This document shows positions 19,923 to 41,713 of a DNA stretch of 64,000 nucleotides, piece by piece (within the stretch, counting starts at the first letter, position 1; every line of letters begins with the position of its first letter). Source of the stretch: Balamuthia mandrillaris. Taxonomy: Eukaryota > Discosea > Longamoebia > Balamuthiidae. Location of the stretch: assembly GCA_031835245.1 (NCBI GenBank), contig JAVKOQ010000277.1:1-64000 (forward strand). Reading direction: 5' to 3'. The notes beneath the pieces were generated by a model. It ran no database searches. It saw nothing but the letters and a program-made list of their open reading frames with translations, and was not told where the DNA came from. The position numbers and the translations under genes were made by a program.

Positions 19923-22170
19923 AGATCTTATGATCAAAGGACGACAAAAAAAGAAATCACGGCATTAGTCTTTTGGGCCAATGAGCATGTTTCCCGCCAA
20001 AACAACCCTTCCTTCTCCCACGTCTTTGAAGGCAAAGTGGTGGGTTGGGGTGAGGTGAATGGAATGGATGCTCATGCTGCTGCTGCCGCCAATAAACTTT
20101 TGGTACTCGTCATTCGCCTTGACACTTTTCTGCTACTCGTTTTCTTTTCTTCTCTTCTCTTCTTTTCTTTTCATTTCTTTCTTTTCAAAAGTAAACACAC
20201 AGACACACACATCCACGAAGCTCCACGCACCACCGTATTTCTCATTGCTACGCTTCTACTACACAAGGAGGAAACCAGCGGAAGGAGGCAGAGGTGGAAA
20301 CCGAAGCGGTTCAGCCGCAGGCAGGGGCACTGCTCCGATTGAAAAGGTAGCGTTCTTTTTTCTCTGCTCGCTCACTACATTTTTTGATGATGGAAACAAA
20401 ATTTGTTACCAACCACTCACTAATGATTTCTTTTGTTTAAAAAAGAACAGCATCACGAACCTCTGTGCGCCTCTTCCACAACGCTGCTGGAAGCTGGCCT
20501 GAATGGCAAGTTGCCCACAGTGCGGAAAAAAGTTTGCTACCTCTCACGGGTTGGCCATCCACTTCGGTCGGGTCCACAAGGAAGGGGGTCGCGCCACTAC
20601 TTCTGCTACTTCCACTGCTACTCGGAAAAGAAGAGAGGAAAACGCCCCAGCGGCACCTCAGGCAAGGGCACAGAAGCGTGGAAGGCCGCAGGCTGCACCC
20701 GCCCAGCCCTTTTGGAACCAGTTTTCCAGCTTAATCGGGAGAAGATTAATACGCCCGGAAGCCTTGTGCTTGGAAGAACCCTTTGCCTGTGGTTCAGGAT
20801 GGTTCACCGCCTGCAAGCACATTCCTAACGGAGAAAAGGTGTTGGAGGAGGAGGAGGAGAAGGAGAAGGAGAAGAAGGAGGAAGAGGAAGAGGAGAAGGA
20901 GAAGGAGAAGGAGAAGAAGGAGGAAGAGGAAGAGGAGAAGGAGAAGGAAGAAGAGGAGAAAAACCAGAAAGGCTTGTTAGGCCTCATCGAGGGACTCGTT
21001 CCGTCTCGCCCAGCCGTACAGCTCACCAAAAAAGGCAAGAACGGAGAGGAGAAACCGGTAGTGGGGCGAGTGGAGAAGATCCGCCTTTATCCGCGCTCAG
21101 AACAAAAGAAGACGCTGGCCAAGTGGTTCGGCACAGTACGATGGACCTACAACAAGGCCGTGGAGTTCCATCGTGAACATCAAGGAATGCCTCGTGATGA
21201 GATGAAGGAACAAGTCAGGAAGAAATTCCTAAATAACAGCAATTTCAAGGGAGAGAACAAGAGCCTTGCGTGGGTGTTGGAAACTCCTCGATTCATTCGG
21301 AGTGACGCTGTCGATGATTTCTTCAACGGCGTGAAAAGCAGCTTGGCGGCGGGCAGAGGCACGACTGGATTCCAGATGAAGTTCCGTGGTAGGAAGGACA
21401 AGAGCCAGTCTCTCAGCATCCAAGCCAGGGAGTGGAACCACAACAGCTCTATCCGCCAACTCTTCTTCGGGGAGGCGCGAATCAAAGCGAGGGACAAGAA
21501 CTACAAAGTTCCGTCAGAGGTGCTCTATGCCGTTCGTCTGGTGAAGGACACTCGACTGGGCCATTACTACCTCTGCGTGCCTCAGCCTTTGAAGCTCATG
21601 GGCGAGAGCCAAGCCCGTGAGCACCGAAGGAGAGAGGCAGGCATCATCGCCTTGGATCCAGGAGTGCGCACATTCATGACCACCTACAACGGCTGCGGGG
21701 AGGTCACCGAGTGGGGCAAAGCGGACATCAACGACATGGCAAGCTGTGCCACCGCCTGGATCGCATGCAGAGTAAGGGCACCAAGGGCAACCACGGGCAA
21801 CGGCGCCGTCTCCGAAGGGCCGCTGCTCGGCTTCGCCAGAGGATCCGCAACCTGGTGGATGACCTCCACAAGAAGCTCGTGTCTTGGTTGGTCAGGAACT
21901 TCTCCCTCATCCTTCTGCCAGAGTTCAGGAGCCAGCAGATGGTGCGGCGAGGCCACCGCCGCATTGGCTCGCGAACGGCCAGAGCCATGCTCACCTGGCC
22001 CCACTATCGCTTCAGGCAGAGGCTCCTCAACAAGGCCAAGCAATTTCCGTCCTGTACAGTCTGCCTCTGCGATGAGGAATACACTTCCAAGACCTGCGGC
22101 AAGTGCGGCCAAGTCCACCTTGGGGGCACCGAAATGGTTTTGTTTCCCCCCAACTGGTGGTGGACTTGGC
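19923..22170 (+). mobile_element. Fanzor element, copy 1 (truncated, inactive)
   Basis: The interval is nearly identical to the reverse complement of 39396-41604. Similarity begins at AGATCTTATGATC (19923-19935) and includes about 570 bp upstream of the frame, the coding region, and then stops in the zinc-ribbon region. The terminal 18-bp repeat and the ~170-bp 3' noncoding tail of copy 2 are absent here. The element lies between the RhoGEF stop (19884) and the DCP1 start (22333). Confidence 0.88.
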
Positions 22171-37111: not shown

Positions 37112-37240
37112 CCATTCTAACCTATTTGAACAAGCTAAGACCTTTCAATTTCCTCTTATATTTTCAAATAGGTTAGAATGGTCATCTACATGGCATATGA
37201 TAGAGAATATAAGAGGAAATTGAAAGGTCTTAGCTTGGTT
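36818..37240. repeat. Nested palindromic centre of the Harbinger composite
   Basis: A block of about 75-90 bp containing GGTTAGAATGGTCATCTACA occurs directly at 36858-36877 and 37171-37190, and inverted at 37104-37123; a further inverted part runs to 37240. This is the junction where the two units meet head to head, with 36957-37020 also matching the outer right flank (39035-39103, inverted). Confidence 0.8.
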
Positions 37241-37594
37241 CGCTGACCGCCATGCATCTTGCCCAACACCATGCAGTTGCATCGCAGAAAATATGGCCTG
37301 CAGTTCAACTTCCAACAATGGAAGCCTTTTGATGATCACCCATATTTTGTTTTGGTCGGTTTCATCTCGTTTTACTTCCGCCCGGTAGCCTGGAAGATTT
37401 CGCAGAACCAAGACCACAGCATCAGTCGTCTGAGCACGCCAAAACCAGATGTCTTGTTGTGGTGATGGAGTGAGTTGATGTGGTAGTGGTGATGAAGAAG
37501 AAAGGCGTTTGCGCTTGAGCCTTTGTGTTGGTGAAGTGTGATGAGTGTTGTTTGGTTGCTGTACAGCCACCTTTTGGTATTGTGGCTCAGGCGG

Positions 37595-37625
<31 letters not shown>

Positions 37626-37999
37626 TCCTCCTCTTCAGAAAAGCCCATTGCTTCTTCTGCTTCCTGATCTAAGAAAGGCTCAGCAGTTCGTCTTGTGTTG
37701 TTTCTCAACGCAAAAAGGTCATTAATCACGGAGGTTGAGGGTGGGGGTGCTTGTAAACAAAAGTTGTTAGCAAGAGCACTTAAAGGCAAAGAGCAACTAC
37801 CATTACCTTTTTTTTTTGGCTTCATCTGTTTTTCTAGTTCTTTCCATTTCCTTTGAATGGCGGCCACAGACCGAGATTTGCCAAAGTCCTTTGTCAACAT
37901 GGGACATGCTTTTTCCCAATCTCCGTTGAAGCTTTTGATGGCGTCACTCACAACTTTTAGTTCCTCTGCAGTCCATGTCTTGCCTCTTCCACTACTCAT
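37145..37999 (-). CDS. Harbinger-associated Myb/SANT protein, copy 2
   Basis: It is nearly the same as copy 1 (36053-37111) but on the other strand, starting at 37999 with 'MSSGRGKTWTAEELKVVS'. The SANT domain and linker are intact, the Glu run is longer and placed differently, and the C-terminal block is kept to 'QAKTFQFPLIFS', after which the frame diverges at the palindromic junction and ends. The terminal ~60 residues of copy 1 are therefore missing. It could still bind DNA. Confidence 0.78.
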
Positions 38000-38289: not shown

Positions 38290-38333
38290 AACTTCAAACT
38301 TCAATCTGACGAATACCTGACGGAAACACAGTG
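38290..38333 (+). repeat. Single MITE arm left in the right Harbinger unit
   Basis: It matches the 51-bp arm at 35539-35589 with one change (GACGAATACC for GACGGATACC). Sequence then jumps straight to the transposase intron, so the deletion end lies at about 38334. Confidence 0.75.
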
Positions 38334-38456
38334 TTTTCTTCTTGTTTCTCCATTTTTTTCTTTCTTCTTTTCTTTTTCTCTTTACTGTCATTCTTCTTTC
38401 CTTGCTCTAATCTTTTTTCTTGTTTTTTCTTTTTCATTTTTTTTCTTTTTTTTTTT

Positions 38457-39014
38457 TTGCTTGTAAAGCACTTTGATCGGTGTCACGGCCAAGTTCTCCA
38501 CCGACCTTTAGTCACAGGCATCATAGACACTACAGAGTGTCCTGTTCAGCGTTCTATGAATGCCAACACTCAACGTACATTTTATTCTGGCAAAAAAAAG
38601 CAGCACACAGTCAAATACGAACTCGTGTGGGACTTGGCGACGGAGCTCTTTTCCTGGGTCAACGGCCCTTTTCCAGGTTCAGTACATGACCTCACAATTG
38701 CTCGTCAAGGTGTTCTCAATTACCTTTCCATTCGTGAGATCCTTTTAGGCGACCTTGCTGACCGAGGCGAGCCGAGTTTTTTTACTCCCATCAAGAGAGA
38801 GCGAGGACAAAGCTTGGGCGAGTTGGCTCAAGTGTTTAACCGGCTGTTGGGAGCAGAACGAGTGGAAGTGGAGAGGGCGATTCGTCGTCTAAAAGTTTTC
38901 AACTGCTTACATACCACTTGGCGTCACTCATTAGAGTTTCATTCTTCATGCTTTACCCTTATTGTTTGTATTGTAAACATTGATTTATGTTTTTTTCCTT
39001 TGACTCGCAAATAA
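38457..39014 (+). pseudogene. Harbinger transposase, copy 2 (5' half deleted)
   Basis: It carries the second exon only: 'HFDRCHGQVLHRPLVTGIID' through 'GSVHDLTIA', 'GDLADRGEPSFFTPIK' and 'GAERVEVERAIRRLK', to a stop at 39012-39014. The exon for the N-terminal ~110 residues (35057-35396 in copy 1) is absent. The catalytic triad residues remain but there is no start, so it is not expected to be functional. It differs from copy 1 at scattered positions. Confidence 0.85.
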
Positions 39015-39035: not shown

Positions 39036-39109
39036 GTGTTTTAAACAAAATAAAAAACGTGTTTAAACTAAGCAGAACAAACTCTCGTTCCCTCAGGTCT
39101 AATGCCCCT
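39036..39109 (-). repeat. Second inverted copy of the Harbinger-end motif
   Basis: On the minus strand TAGACCTGAGGGAACGAGAG (ending at 39103) is followed by about 60 bp that align with 36957-37020. So the end motif GACCTGAGGGAAC occurs four times: 34278, 36959, 39022-39034 and 39090-39102. On the minus strand the frame reads 'LDLRE' twice, as 'VDLRE' in copy 1. Confidence 0.65.
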
Positions 39110-39127
39110 AAGGCGGCGCCAAGATCA
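39110..39127 (+). repeat. Fanzor copy 2 terminal inverted repeat, left
   Basis: AAGGCGGCGCCAAGATCA; 17 of 18 positions pair with 41600-41617. It contains the palindrome GGCGCC. Confidence 0.8.
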
Positions 39128-39278
39128 AGCCGATCAATGGGACAACGAAAATAAAGCAAAATTAGTAAAAGGAAAACAAAAACAGACAAAAAAATAACCC
39201 ACCTCCGGCGTGCCTAATCACGGCTTATCTTACGACTCGCTATAAGCAACGGTGCCGGCACCAAAGCAACCTTACCGC
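39128..39278 (-). ncRNA. Candidate Fanzor guide RNA (omega-RNA) region
   Basis: In TnpB and Fanzor systems the guide RNA overlaps or follows the 3' end of the nuclease gene and its guide part reads out of the element. This ~150-bp stretch lies between the stop codon (39279-39281) and the terminal repeat, has a GC-rich part (39205-39278) unlike the AT-rich remainder, and contains the 12-bp palindrome GGTGCCGGCACC at 39251-39262 and other short foldbacks. The position and composition are seen; the RNA itself is an inference. The missing counterpart in copy 1 prevents comparison. Confidence 0.4.
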
Positions 39279-41030
39279 CTACCGCCCCCTCACAGAGGAG
39301 GAGGAGGAGGTGGTAAGTGCTTGTAAAGTGAAAAAGCGGATCAAGATGTTTCGGGCGGCGTTGGCATCTCGATCGGCCTGGTAGCCACACTCGGGTTGGG
39401 GGCACCGAAAGGTCTTGTTTCCCCCCAACTGGTGGTGGACTTGGCCGCACTTGCCGCAGGTCTTGGAGGTGTATTCCTCATCGCAGAGGCAGACCGTACA
39501 GGACGGAAATTGCTGGGCCTTGTTGAGGAGCCTCTGCCTGAAGCGATAGTGGGACCAGGTGAGCATGGCTCTGGCCGTTCGCGAGCCAATGCGGCGGTGG
39601 CCTCGCCGCACCATCTGCTGGCTCCTGAACTCTGGCAGAAGGATGAGGGAGAAGTTCCTGACCAACCAAGACACGAGCTTCTTGTGGAGGTCATCCACCA
39701 GGTTGCGGATCCTCTGGCGAAGCCGAGCAGCGGCCCTTCGGAGACGGCGCCGTTGTCTGTGGTTGACCTTGGTGCCCTTACTCTGCATGCGATCCAGGCG
39801 GTGGCACAGCTTGCCTATCTCGTTGATGTCCGCTTTGCCCCACTCGGTGACCTCCCCGCAGCCGTTGTAGGTGGTCATGAATGTGCGCACTCCTGGATCC
39901 AAGGCGATGATGCCTGCCTCTCTCCTTCGGTGCTCACGGGCTTGGCTCTCGCCCATGAGCTTCAAAGGCTGAGGCACGCAGAGGTAGTAATGGCCCAGTC
40001 GAGTGTCCTTCACCAGACGAACGGCATAGAGCACCTCCGACGGAACTTTGTAGTTCTTGTCCCTCGCTTTGATTCGCGCCTCCCCGAAGAAGAGTTGGCG
40101 GATAGAGCTGTTGTGGTTCCACTCCCTGGCTTGGATGCTGAGAGACTGGCTCTTGTCCTTCCTACCACGGAACTTCATCTGGAATCCAGTCGTGCCTCTG
40201 CCCGCCGCCAAGCTGCTTTTCACGCCATTGAAGAAATCATCGACAGCGTCACTGCGAATGAATCGAGGAGTTTCCAACACCCACGCAAGGCTCTTGTTCT
40301 CTCCCTTGAAATTGCTGTTATTTAGGAATTTCTTCCTGACTTGTTCCTTCATCTCATCACGAGGCATTCCTTGATGTTCACGATGGAACTCCACGGCCTT
40401 GTTGTAGGTCCATCGTACTGTGCCGAACCACTTGGCCAACGTCTTCTTTTGTTCCGGGCGCGGATAAAGGCGGATCTTCTCCACTCGCCCCACTACCGGT
40501 TTCTCCTCTCCGTTCTTGCCTTTTTTGGTAAGCTGTACGGCTGGGCGAGACGGAACGAGTCCCTCGATGAGGCCTAACAAGCCTTTCTGGTTTTTCTCCT
40601 CTTCTTCCTTCTCCTTCTCCTTCTCCTTCTCCTTCTCCTCTTCCTCTTCCTCCTTCTTCTCCTTCTCCTTCTTCTTCTCCTCCTCCTCCAACACCTTTTC
40701 TCCGTTAGGAATGTGCTTGCAGGCGGTGAACCATCCTGAACCACAGGCAAAGGGTTCTTCCAAGCACAAGGCTTCCGGGCGTATTAATCTTCTCCCGATT
40801 AAGCTGGAAAACTGGTTCCAAAAGGGCTGGGCGGGTGCAGCCTGCGGCCTTCCACGCTTCTGTGCCCTTGCCTGAGGTGCCGCTGGGGCGTTTTCCGCTC
40901 TTCTTTTCCGAGTAGCAGTGGAAGTAGCAGAAGTAGTGGCGCGACCCCCTTCCTTGTGGACCTGACCGAAGTGGATGGCCAACCCGTGAGAGGTAGCAAA
41001 CTTTTTTCCGCACTGTGGGCAACTTGCCAT
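39279..41030 (-). CDS. Fanzor RNA-guided nuclease homologue with N-terminal C2H2 finger
   Basis: Fanzor proteins are eukaryotic TnpB relatives; characterised ones are RNA-guided DNA nucleases. This 583-residue protein starts at ATG 41030. Residues 4-25 form a classical C2H2 finger (C4, C7, H20, H25). Basic and Pro/Ala-rich sequence follows, then a Glu/Lys-rich linker (about 113-147). The TnpB-like core starts near 180 ('KIRLYP', 'TVRWTYNKAVEFH', 'FQMKFRGRKD'). The RuvC residues are D378 in 'GIIALDPGVRTF', E467 in 'LILLPEFRSQQM' and D555 in 'ADRDANAARN'. The zinc ribbon is C525-x2-C528 and C543-x4-C548. The gene has no introns, unlike its neighbours. Copy 1 is the broken sister. Activity is inferred from intact motifs only. 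Confidence 0.93.
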   Translation of the reverse strand: MASCPQCGKKFATSHGLAIHFGQVHKEGGRATTSATSTATRKRRAENAPAAPQARAQKRGRPQAAPAQPFWNQFSSLIGRRLIRPEALCLEEPFACGSGWFTACKHIPNGEKVLEEEEKKKEKEKKEEEEEEKEKEKEKEKEEEEKNQKGLLGLIEGLVPSRPAVQLTKKGKNGEEKPVVGRVEKIRLYPRPEQKKTLAKWFGTVRWTYNKAVEFHREHQGMPRDEMKEQVRKKFLNNSNFKGENKSLAWVLETPRFIRSDAVDDFFNGVKSSLAAGRGTTGFQMKFRGRKDKSQSLSIQAREWNHNSSIRQLFFGEARIKARDKNYKVPSEVLYAVRLVKDTRLGHYYLCVPQPLKLMGESQAREHRRREAGIIALDPGVRTFMTTYNGCGEVTEWGKADINEIGKLCHRLDRMQSKGTKVNHRQRRRLRRAAARLRQRIRNLVDDLHKKLVSWLVRNFSLILLPEFRSQQMVRRGHRRIGSRTARAMLTWSHYRFRQRLLNKAQQFPSCTVCLCDEEYTSKTCGKCGQVHHQLGGNKTFRCPQPECGYQADRDANAARNILIRFFTLQALTTSSSSSVRGR

Positions 41031-41599
41031 TCAGGCCAGCTTCCAGCAGCGTTGTGGAAGAGGCACACAGAGGTTCGTGATGCTGTTCTTTTTTAAACAA
41101 AAGAAATCATTAGTGAGTGGTTGGTAACAATTTTTTTTTCCATCATCAAAAAATGTAGTGAGTGAGCAGAGAAAAAAGAACGCTACCTTTTCAATCGGAG
41201 CAGTGCCCCTGCCTGCGGCTGAACCGCTTCGGTTTCCACCTCTGCCTCCTTCCGCTGGTTTCCTCCTTGTGTAGTAGGAGCATAGCAATCAGAAATACGG
41301 TGGTGCGTGGAGCTTCGTGGATGTGTGTGTCTGTGTGTTTACTTTTGAAAAGAAAGAAATGAAAAGAAAAGAAGAGAAGAGAAGAAAAGAAAACGAGTAG
41401 CAGAAAAGTGTCAAGGCGAATGACGAGTACCAAAAGTTTATTGGCGGCAGCAGCAGCATGAGCATCCATTCCGTACACCCCACCCTACCACTTTGCCTTC
41501 AGAGACGTGGGAGAAGGAAGGGTTGTTTTGGCGGGAAACATGCTCATTGGCCCAAAAGACTAATGTCGTGATTTCTTTTTTCGTTGTCCTTAGATCTTA
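41031..41599 (-). promoter_or_regulatory. Fanzor 5' region, probably promoter and spliced leader exon
   Basis: About 570 bp upstream of the start, conserved in both copies. It has a long pyrimidine-rich stretch (about 41340-41410 on the coding strand) and a probable small intron between about 41186 and 41095 (donor after 'ATTGAAAAG', acceptor after a T/A run). The joined leader has a short frame ending at the nuclease ATG. Promoter function is inferred from conservation. Confidence 0.4.
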
Positions 41600-41617
41600 T
41601 GATCTTTGCGCCGCCTT
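41600..41617 (-). repeat. Fanzor copy 2 terminal inverted repeat, right
   Basis: TGATCTTTGCGCCGCCTT; pairs with 39110-39127. Next to it, AGATCTTATGATC (41592-41604) also starts the similarity in copy 1 (19923-19935), reading the same way on the plus strand although the two elements are in opposite orientation. Confidence 0.78.
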
Positions 41618-41713
41618 ACAAATGCCCCTGTTGCTTTTAGCGGCGACCACTACCATTGCGCGTTGACCAAGAACGTAGATCGCTGCTTCTTTTATTATGG
41701 ATGATAGCAAGTA

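What the first reader, a model, noticed from the sequence alone, without database searches (positions are those of the whole stretch)
39110..41617. Intact Fanzor element with a C2H2 finger fused to the nuclease and clear terminal repeats
The sequence shows one intronless 583-codon frame with all RuvC residues (D378, E467, D555), a zinc ribbon and a classical C2H2 finger at residues 4-25, enclosed by an 18-bp terminal inverted repeat and a probable 9-bp flanking duplication. Fanzor proteins are known RNA-guided nucleases. The zinc finger could give an extra DNA-binding or end-recognition step. I cannot say whether this exact domain fusion has been described.
Basis: partly seen in the sequence, partly recalled or inferred. 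Interest (0 to 1): 0.92.

Follow-up and report, generated by a model that had tools for sequence, protein, structure and literature searches.

The report
Zinc-finger-tipped Fanzor in an amoeba transposon
In the genome of an amoeba, a recently spread DNA transposon carries a gene of the Fanzor (RNA-guided nuclease) kind whose protein starts with a zinc finger not seen in the examined relatives outside this genome, a small but new twist on a known family.

Summary
The observation largely holds. Window 39279-41030 (-) is one open 583-codon frame of the Fanzor2/TnpB family inside a TIR element at 39109-41618, in a genome matching Balamuthia mandrillaris. The element is a family: 255 TIR-like sites genome-wide (0 in the reversed control). 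Of 30 fetched best-matching loci, 18, at distinct sites, keep a full ORF; all 18 keep the four zinc ligands of the N-terminal C2H2 finger. No in-frame Met lies between M1 and M222, so an unspliced, AUG-started protein carries the finger.

Additions: insertions leave short duplications (17 of 31 end pairs; re-paired control mean 0.05). A CAG motif marks mainly the 5' side (38 of 64 versus 6 of 59 ends), so the two ends behave differently. No transposase was recognised in the element. Two related families in this genome encode an IS607-type serine recombinase in another frame over the Fanzor N-terminus; here that frame is broken and the finger sits where its 5' part would be.

Best filing: a Fanzor2* variant with a new N-terminal arm. 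RNA guidance, cleavage and the finger's role are inferred, not shown.

The parts
39109..41618 (-). Whole element, TIR to TIR (TAAGG...CCTTA), Fanzor gene on the - strand
   Evidence: End pattern found 255 times in the genome, 0 in the reversed control; most fetched copies align to the window element up to or near these ends
39109..39127 (+). C-type TIR (3' end of the element relative to the Fanzor gene): TAAGGCGGCGCCAAGATCA
41600..41618 (-). A-type TIR (5' end relative to the gene): TAAGGCGGCGCAAAGATCA; similarity to the other end continues imperfectly inward (about 81% over some 43 bp in BLAST)
39101..39109 (.). Flanking duplication, left copy AATGCCCCT (its last T is also the outer T of the TIR)
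   Evidence: matched by script
41621..41629 (.). Flanking duplication, right copy AATGCCCCT, separated from the CCTT end by ACA
39279..41030 (-). Fanzor2-type ORF, 583 aa; M1 directly preceded by an in-frame stop, next Met at residue 222
40956..41021 (-). C2H2 zinc finger, residues 4-25 (CPQCGKKFATSHGLAIHFGQVH)
   Evidence: Ligands C4, C7, H20, H25 kept in 18 of 18 full-ORF copies examined
40842..40910 (-). Basic linker, residues 41-63: RKRR (NLS-like) and KRGRPQ (AT-hook-like core); both labels are from recall
   Evidence: KRGRPQ kept in 18 of 18; Pfam lists no AT-hook hit up to E 1
40710..40829 (-). Residues 68-107 (QPFWN...GSGWFTACKHI): counterpart of the FWN...SWFS stretch that in relatives is read out of frame over the tnpA serine-recombinase gene
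40386..40478 (-). HTH_OrfB_IS605 domain, residues 185-215
39897..39899 (-). RuvC-I aspartate D378 in a DPG motif
   Evidence: D in 62 of 62 aligned rows
39477..39479 (-). E518, shifted RuvC-II glutamate (E-x6-C525)
   Evidence: E in 61 of 62 rows, gap in one
39345..39551 (-). TNB / zinc-ribbon domain with E518, C525, C528, C543, C548 and D555
39109..39278 (-). 3' non-coding region between stop codon and element end, the expected place of the guide RNA scaffold
   Evidence: Inferred from position only; fold no better than shuffled (z 0.29, 39109-39290), no Rfam match here

Best explanation
A recently amplified, non-autonomous terminal-inverted-repeat DNA transposon of Balamuthia carries a Fanzor2-type RNA-guided nuclease as its only recognised gene. 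The Fanzor probably descends from an IS607-type element: related families in the same genome still carry the serine recombinase in an overlapping frame, while here that frame is broken. It now travels on TIRs that leave short target duplications (about 8-10 bp) and are probably mobilised in trans by an unidentified cut-and-paste transposase. The Fanzor most likely binds an RNA made from the 3' end of the element and its flank and cuts matching unoccupied sites, which favours keeping the element. The N-terminal finger, with the basic linker, most likely acts as an extra DNA-holding and nuclear-retention arm; binding to the element's own ends is the specific version to test. Shown here: family, copies, ends, duplications, finger conservation, overlap with tnpA in two related families. 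Inferred: transposase in trans, guide RNA, cutting, the role of the finger.
For: Family: PF07282 and PF12323 over cut-off; best solved relative is the mimivirus TnpB-like protein L79, 9b0l, 2e-27; DPG and E-x6-CxxC as published for Fanzors (PMC10711439 passages; here). Copies: 81 matches at E<=0.001, whole and partial; 18 full ORFs whose flanks share nothing by a 16-mer test, median pairwise ORF identity 98.3%, top 99.7%. Pooled pN/pS about 0.27, my sum over the regions printed (19 ORFs, one with an internal deletion; multi-base changes left out). Finger: ligands in 18 of 18, no other AUG before residue 222. Ends and duplications. IS607 ancestry: resolvase PF00239 at 2.5e-18 and 1.1e-20 in the overlapping frame of two related families; serine-recombinase-like short motifs in a frame near the Fanzor start at 34 of 37 viral relatives.
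Against: No transposase with these ends was found: seven other frames of the element have no Pfam hit up to E 0.1; MULE domains exist in the genome (68 matches), but by eye the nearest to a listed TIR place is 8.8 kb off and outside its end (C610; the lists are partial). The predicted RNA fold is not better than shuffled. The finger region shows too few changes to prove selection on it (1 synonymous, 3 nonsynonymous). Among the 30 loci, 4 copies (L026, L027, L030, L033) shift frame in the finger and L034 lacks the start and first cysteines; three of these five still keep the core frame open to its normal end. One of the 18 full ORFs (L022) has a 6-residue duplication in the ribbon. The oriented CAG motif is unusual for a symmetric TIR transposase.
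Confidence: 0.72

Rival explanations
1. The Fanzor itself takes part in choosing insertion sites: CA(G) upstream of the duplicated stretch is its target-adjacent motif, and breaks that it makes at unoccupied sites are repaired from the element (homing or copy-in).
For: CAG starts at -13, -12 or -11 in 38 of 64 distinct 5' ends but in 6 of 59 3' ends; other positions have 0-3 each. Both ends carry nearly the same TIR, so a symmetric complex would not be expected to give an oriented motif (inference).
Against: Duplications in 17 of 31 pairs look like staggered transposase cuts; Yoon 2023 places the duplication inside the RNA scaffold of Fanzor2* (passages), which would move the target-adjacent motif to the other end of the duplication. 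Elements of 38 and 56 bp without the Fanzor gene also have duplications.
Confidence: 0.15
2. The finger is a neutral passenger picked up at the 5' end during capture by the TIR element; it supplies the start codon but no needed function.
For: Finger-disrupted copies exist; relatives lack it (0 of 37 viral loci); change counts are too few to show constraint.
Against: All 18 full-ORF copies keep the ligands and the F/L core. In the four frame-shifted copies the finger's ATG is out of frame with the core, whose first in-frame Met then lies at residues 243-252 of the open frame, so they may simply be dead copies.
Confidence: 0.25
3. The finger frame is not translated: the true protein starts elsewhere, by splicing from upstream exons or at a non-AUG codon.
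For: One public gene model (P0001, 644 aa) joins an upstream frame past the finger start.
Against: As I read the DNA, that join needs a 13-base intron, and the copy on the contig of matching length (L031) has the same stretch as the window; another model, P0002, starts at MASCPQC; an in-frame stop directly precedes M1.
Confidence: 0.08

Closest known systems
Fanzor2* (Fanzor2 captured by eukaryotic cut-and-paste transposons; Chloropicon primus, Mercenaria and other molluscs; PMC10711439, passages seen)
   Same: Fanzor2-type protein with DPG and the shifted glutamate, inside an element with TIRs and target duplications
   Different: N-terminal C2H2 finger with basic linker and an oriented CAG motif beside the duplication, which the passages seen do not mention; amoebozoan host
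IS607-type Fanzor2 elements (serine recombinase plus Fanzor2; PMC3627910, passages seen; mimivirus L79, PDB 9b0l)
   Same: HTH_OrfB, RuvC and TNB; related families in the same genome carry an overlapping tnpA frame
   Different: tnpA frame broken here; TIRs and duplications present; finger present
MuDR-like Fanzor1 elements of fungi (ROr-4, PBl-3, MCi-4; PMC3627910, passages seen)
   Same: TIR element with duplications of similar length (9 bp there), Fanzor and no transposase
   Different: There Fanzor1; no MULE transposase with these ends found here
Fanzor1 (SpuFz1; PMC10432273, passages seen)
   Same: Element with inverted repeats in many copies, many without the Fanzor gene
   Different: No chain named Fanzor1 among the 23 solved-structure matches up to E 1; HTH_OrfB, reported for some Fanzor2, is present here

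Membership tests
Fanzor / Fanzor2 | TNB zinc-ribbon and OrfB HTH domains | tested here: met
   PF07282 60.1 of 26.3 bits, PF12323 40.1 of 21 bits; PF01385 28.7 of 30.5 bits, just below
Fanzor / Fanzor2 | DPG at RuvC-I and glutamate six residues before the CxxC | tested here: met
   D378-P-G, E518-x6-C525; the strict published expression fails at C543-x4-C548 instead of CxxC
Fanzor / Fanzor2 | RNA-guided DNA cleavage | not testable with these tools
   No wet assay; RNA fold z 0.29, no Rfam family in the 3' region
Fanzor / Fanzor2 | RuvC residues meet in the fold | not testable with these tools
Fanzor2* | Located in a TIR element with target duplications, not in an active IS607 | tested here: met
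   tnpA frame broken in the window
C2H2 zinc finger | CX2CX12HX3-5H with F and L core | tested here: met
C2H2 zinc finger | Pfam curated cut-off | tested here: not met
   15.5 of 25.2 bits and 15.0 of 27 bits; a lone finger is a short match
Mutator-like (MULE) transposon | TIRs with duplications of about 8-11 bp (range recalled) | tested here: met
   repeats of 9-12 bp as scored, outer A/T letters ambiguous, in 17 of 31 pairs
Mutator-like (MULE) transposon | MULE transposase inside the element, or an autonomous partner with the same ends | tested here: inconclusive
   Not inside; 68 MULE matches in the genome, none seen beside the listed TIR sites (lists partly cut, compared by eye)

The most novel reading that the evidence does not exclude
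A Fanzor whose zinc-finger arm binds its own transposon ends and whose RNA-guided targeting helps to pick insertion sites, so that a TIR transposon has gained an oriented, TAM-like CA(G) target preference from its nuclease cargo.
Probability: 0.1. Interest if true: 0.85.

Novelty: new variant of a known kind. Interest (0 to 1): 0.55.

Why it matters
What Fanzors do for eukaryotic transposons is still open. This family offers, in one genome, many near-identical full ORFs, more than two hundred end sites, Fanzor-less derivatives and insertion sites with an oriented motif, so target-motif and retention models can be tested. It also offers a natural fusion of a zinc finger to a predicted RNA-guided nuclease, and a partly readable history: an IS607-type nuclease gene overlapping tnpA, loss of tnpA, a new N-terminus, a new transposon vehicle.

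Tried and rejected
Autonomous partner: looked for MULE domains, TIR ends without Fanzor, extended ends and domains in seven other frames of the element; none found. A 363-aa zinc-finger-like ORF beside the TIR at C12:319047 looked like a transposase of the element, but it lies in another transposon nested in that copy, so it was dropped.

Sharing of the 3' end with a second Fanzor family (82 bp at 94%): seen in 1 of 5 loci (L001-L005); three of them that I compared lose similarity to each other just past the stop codon, so this is probably a separate small insertion. Dropped.

Guide RNA: single-strand fold and Rfam (one sub-threshold hit inside the ORF) gave nothing; alignment A2 mixed orientations and was not used.

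Duplications: a first scan with looser settings gave 12 of 22 pairs; the settings were fixed after it, and five pairs were added by hand there (three of these five have a duplication).

Tree (quick method, SH-aLRT only): the window protein is on a long branch without a well-supported neighbour and does not group with the other Balamuthia family, so a single versus separate capture is not decided.

Source of the finger: a host-like C2H2 gene (C27, C202 and C219; 47% identity to residues 4-63, E about 5e-6; C219 not fetched) and a protein that from recall looks like ZNF207 (C254, E 0.15) are similar, but similarity of single fingers cannot show descent.

Full report
Host. The window is contig C276 of a 64.8-Mb genome. 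Three named proteins, labelled Balamuthia mandrillaris, lie on contigs of exactly the lengths of C131, C276 and C26 (150365, 67976, 331479), so the genome is taken to be that amoeba (Amoebozoa, Discosea).

The gene. 39279-41030 (-) is open for 583 codons. Pfam places the TNB domain at 494-562 (2.4e-16), HTH_OrfB at 185-215 (2.5e-10) and, just under its cut-off, OrfB_IS605. The best solved relative is the mimivirus TnpB-like protein L79, 9b0l, at 2e-27. In a 62-row alignment (the window and 61 of the 120 homologues listed; A1), D378 is D in 62 rows, D555 in 61, E518 is E in 61, but E467 is E in only 20. Yoon et al. (PMC10711439, passages) describe for Fanzors a DPG motif and a RuvC-II glutamate moved to six residues before the zinc ribbon; E518 is exactly there, and 118 of the 120 listed homologues have the same arrangement. 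The ribbon is CX2C...CX4C, so the strict published expression fails at that one spacing.

The finger. Residues 4-25 read CX2CX12HX4H with F11 and L17. Single-finger Pfam models score below cut-off, so the case rests on conservation: 18 full ORFs (568-591 aa), whose flanks share nothing by a 16-mer test, keep C4, C7, F11, L17, H20 and H25, and all keep a KRGRPQ stretch in the basic linker. In 17 of these 18 the ribbon is normal; L022 has a 6-residue duplication in it. The 18 come from the 30 loci fetched for the best of 81 matches; the other 12 are truncated, frame-shifted or finger-broken. Four of these (L026, L027, L030, L033) shift frame inside the finger, and L034 lacks its first part; in all five the first Met of the open frame lies at residue 228 or later, and three of them keep the normal C-terminus. 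In the window the first Met after M1 is residue 222, beyond the HTH, so in intact copies an AUG-started, unspliced Fanzor contains the finger. Change counts in residues 1-28 (1 synonymous, 3 nonsynonymous, 1 multi-base) are too few to test selection; the pooled pN/pS of the ORF is about 0.27 (my sum over the regions, 19 ORFs).

How rare is the fusion. P0001, another Balamuthia protein, keeps part of it; P0003, the third, lacks it. A search with residues 1-66 alone over 5.8 billion proteins found only P0001 and P0002 (47 candidates scored). None of 37 viral relatives has it. A degenerate older relic (66% identity; L154) still resembles it but has lost one cysteine to a stop, so the finger probably predates the recent burst. 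Papers: 0 with Fanzor and C2H2, 0 with Fanzor and Balamuthia, 29 with Fanzor and zinc finger (listing; I saw passages of two of these, where the zinc-finger passages shown concern the C-terminal ribbon; 27 were not opened). Seventeen hold Fanzor, DNA-binding domain and transposon (listing of 12). Only open-access papers are held; Jiang et al. 2023 is recalled, not seen.

The element. TAAGGCGGCGC[C/A]AAGATCA occurs 127 + 128 times with up to 2 mismatches, 0 + 0 for the reversed pattern. Extended A-type ends: 115, extended C-type ends: 86 (up to 3 mismatches), controls 0. Of 31 non-redundant end pairs, 17 show a duplication of at least 8 bp with at most 1 mismatch (9-12 bp as scored; about 8-10 bp if the ambiguous outer A/T letters are given to the TIR); 500 re-pairings gave a mean of 0.05 and a maximum of 2. 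Fourteen pairs show none, by age, recombination or wrong pairing. Some elements are only 38, 56 or 98 bp long, the first two with a duplication. The window's copy has AATGCCCCT on both sides, 3 bp away from the CCTT end on one side. Seven other frames of the element have no Pfam match.

Oriented target motif. In 64 distinct A-type flanks, CAG starts at -13, -12 or -11 in 22 + 11 + 5 = 38; in 59 C-type flanks at the same positions in 4 + 2 + 0 = 6; other positions have 0-3. These flanks come from fetched loci, not from all 255 sites. The G is the first base of the duplication, whose length would then be 10, 9 or 8 bp. TIRs of near-identical sequence would not by themselves be expected to give an oriented motif, so the two ends probably differ in function. 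I propose a transposase with unequal ends, or a part of the Fanzor in site choice, and do not decide between them.

History. In two related Balamuthia families (C27/C71 at 44-45% and C774/C622/C57 at 55-56% identity) another frame over the Fanzor N-terminus encodes a MerR-like HTH and a resolvase domain (tested on C774 and C27: PF00239 2.5e-18 and 1.1e-20; MerR_1 over its cut-off in one of the two), i.e. an IS607-type TnpA. The FWN...SWFS stretch shared by many Fanzor2 N-termini is there read out of frame from tnpA; 34 of 37 viral relatives show recombinase-like short motifs in the region (a lead). The window protein keeps PFWN...GWFT at 69-102, while its tnpA frame keeps only an LLEPVF-like piece and then stops. 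The finger and linker occupy the place of the recombinase 5' part. Whether the window family and the other Balamuthia families come from one capture is unresolved (tree).

Mechanism. Shown: family, ends, copies, duplications, finger. Inferred from published work on Fanzor and TnpB: an RNA from the 3' end and flank guides cutting of matching DNA. The 170-base 3' region is the place for it, but its fold is ordinary (z 0.29) and no Rfam family matches it. No transposase was found in the element, so movement in trans is inferred. The finger with basic linker is best read as a DNA-holding and nuclear arm; end binding is the testable specific form.

Noticed in passing
window 19923-22139 (+): A second copy of the same Fanzor family with a broken frame; a public 554-aa protein (P0002) lies on a contig of this length and probably models it.
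   Followed up: partly
window 38331-39014 (+) and 37145-37999 (-): A DDE_Tnp_4 transposase ORF (4.2e-25) ends about 95 bases from the TIR, with an ORF of sub-threshold Myb similarity behind it: perhaps a PIF/Harbinger-type element next door (type from recall).
   Followed up: no
relatives: L069, L073, L074, L075 and viral loci L158-L194: The N-terminal extension of annotated Fanzor2-like proteins can be out-of-frame tnpA, so some deposited N-termini may not be real protein.
   Followed up: partly
L073 1-1201 (C71): In this copy the recombinase HTH is in one frame with the Fanzor, with part of tnpA missing: a TnpA-HTH/Fanzor fusion frame, perhaps by deletion.
   Followed up: no
G000 contig ends (e.g. 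C45, C321, C473, C612): A number of MULE-domain matches lie about 1290 bases from a contig end, as if a repeat ends assemblies there.
   Followed up: no
L052 1729-2820, C12:319047 onward: Another transposon with a 363-aa ORF with C2H2-like fingers and no Pfam match over cut-off is nested in a Fanzor copy's end.
   Followed up: partly
element ends: TAAGG and CCTTA(G) next to the duplicated CAG resemble splice-site letters; whether insertions act as introns was not tested.
   Followed up: no
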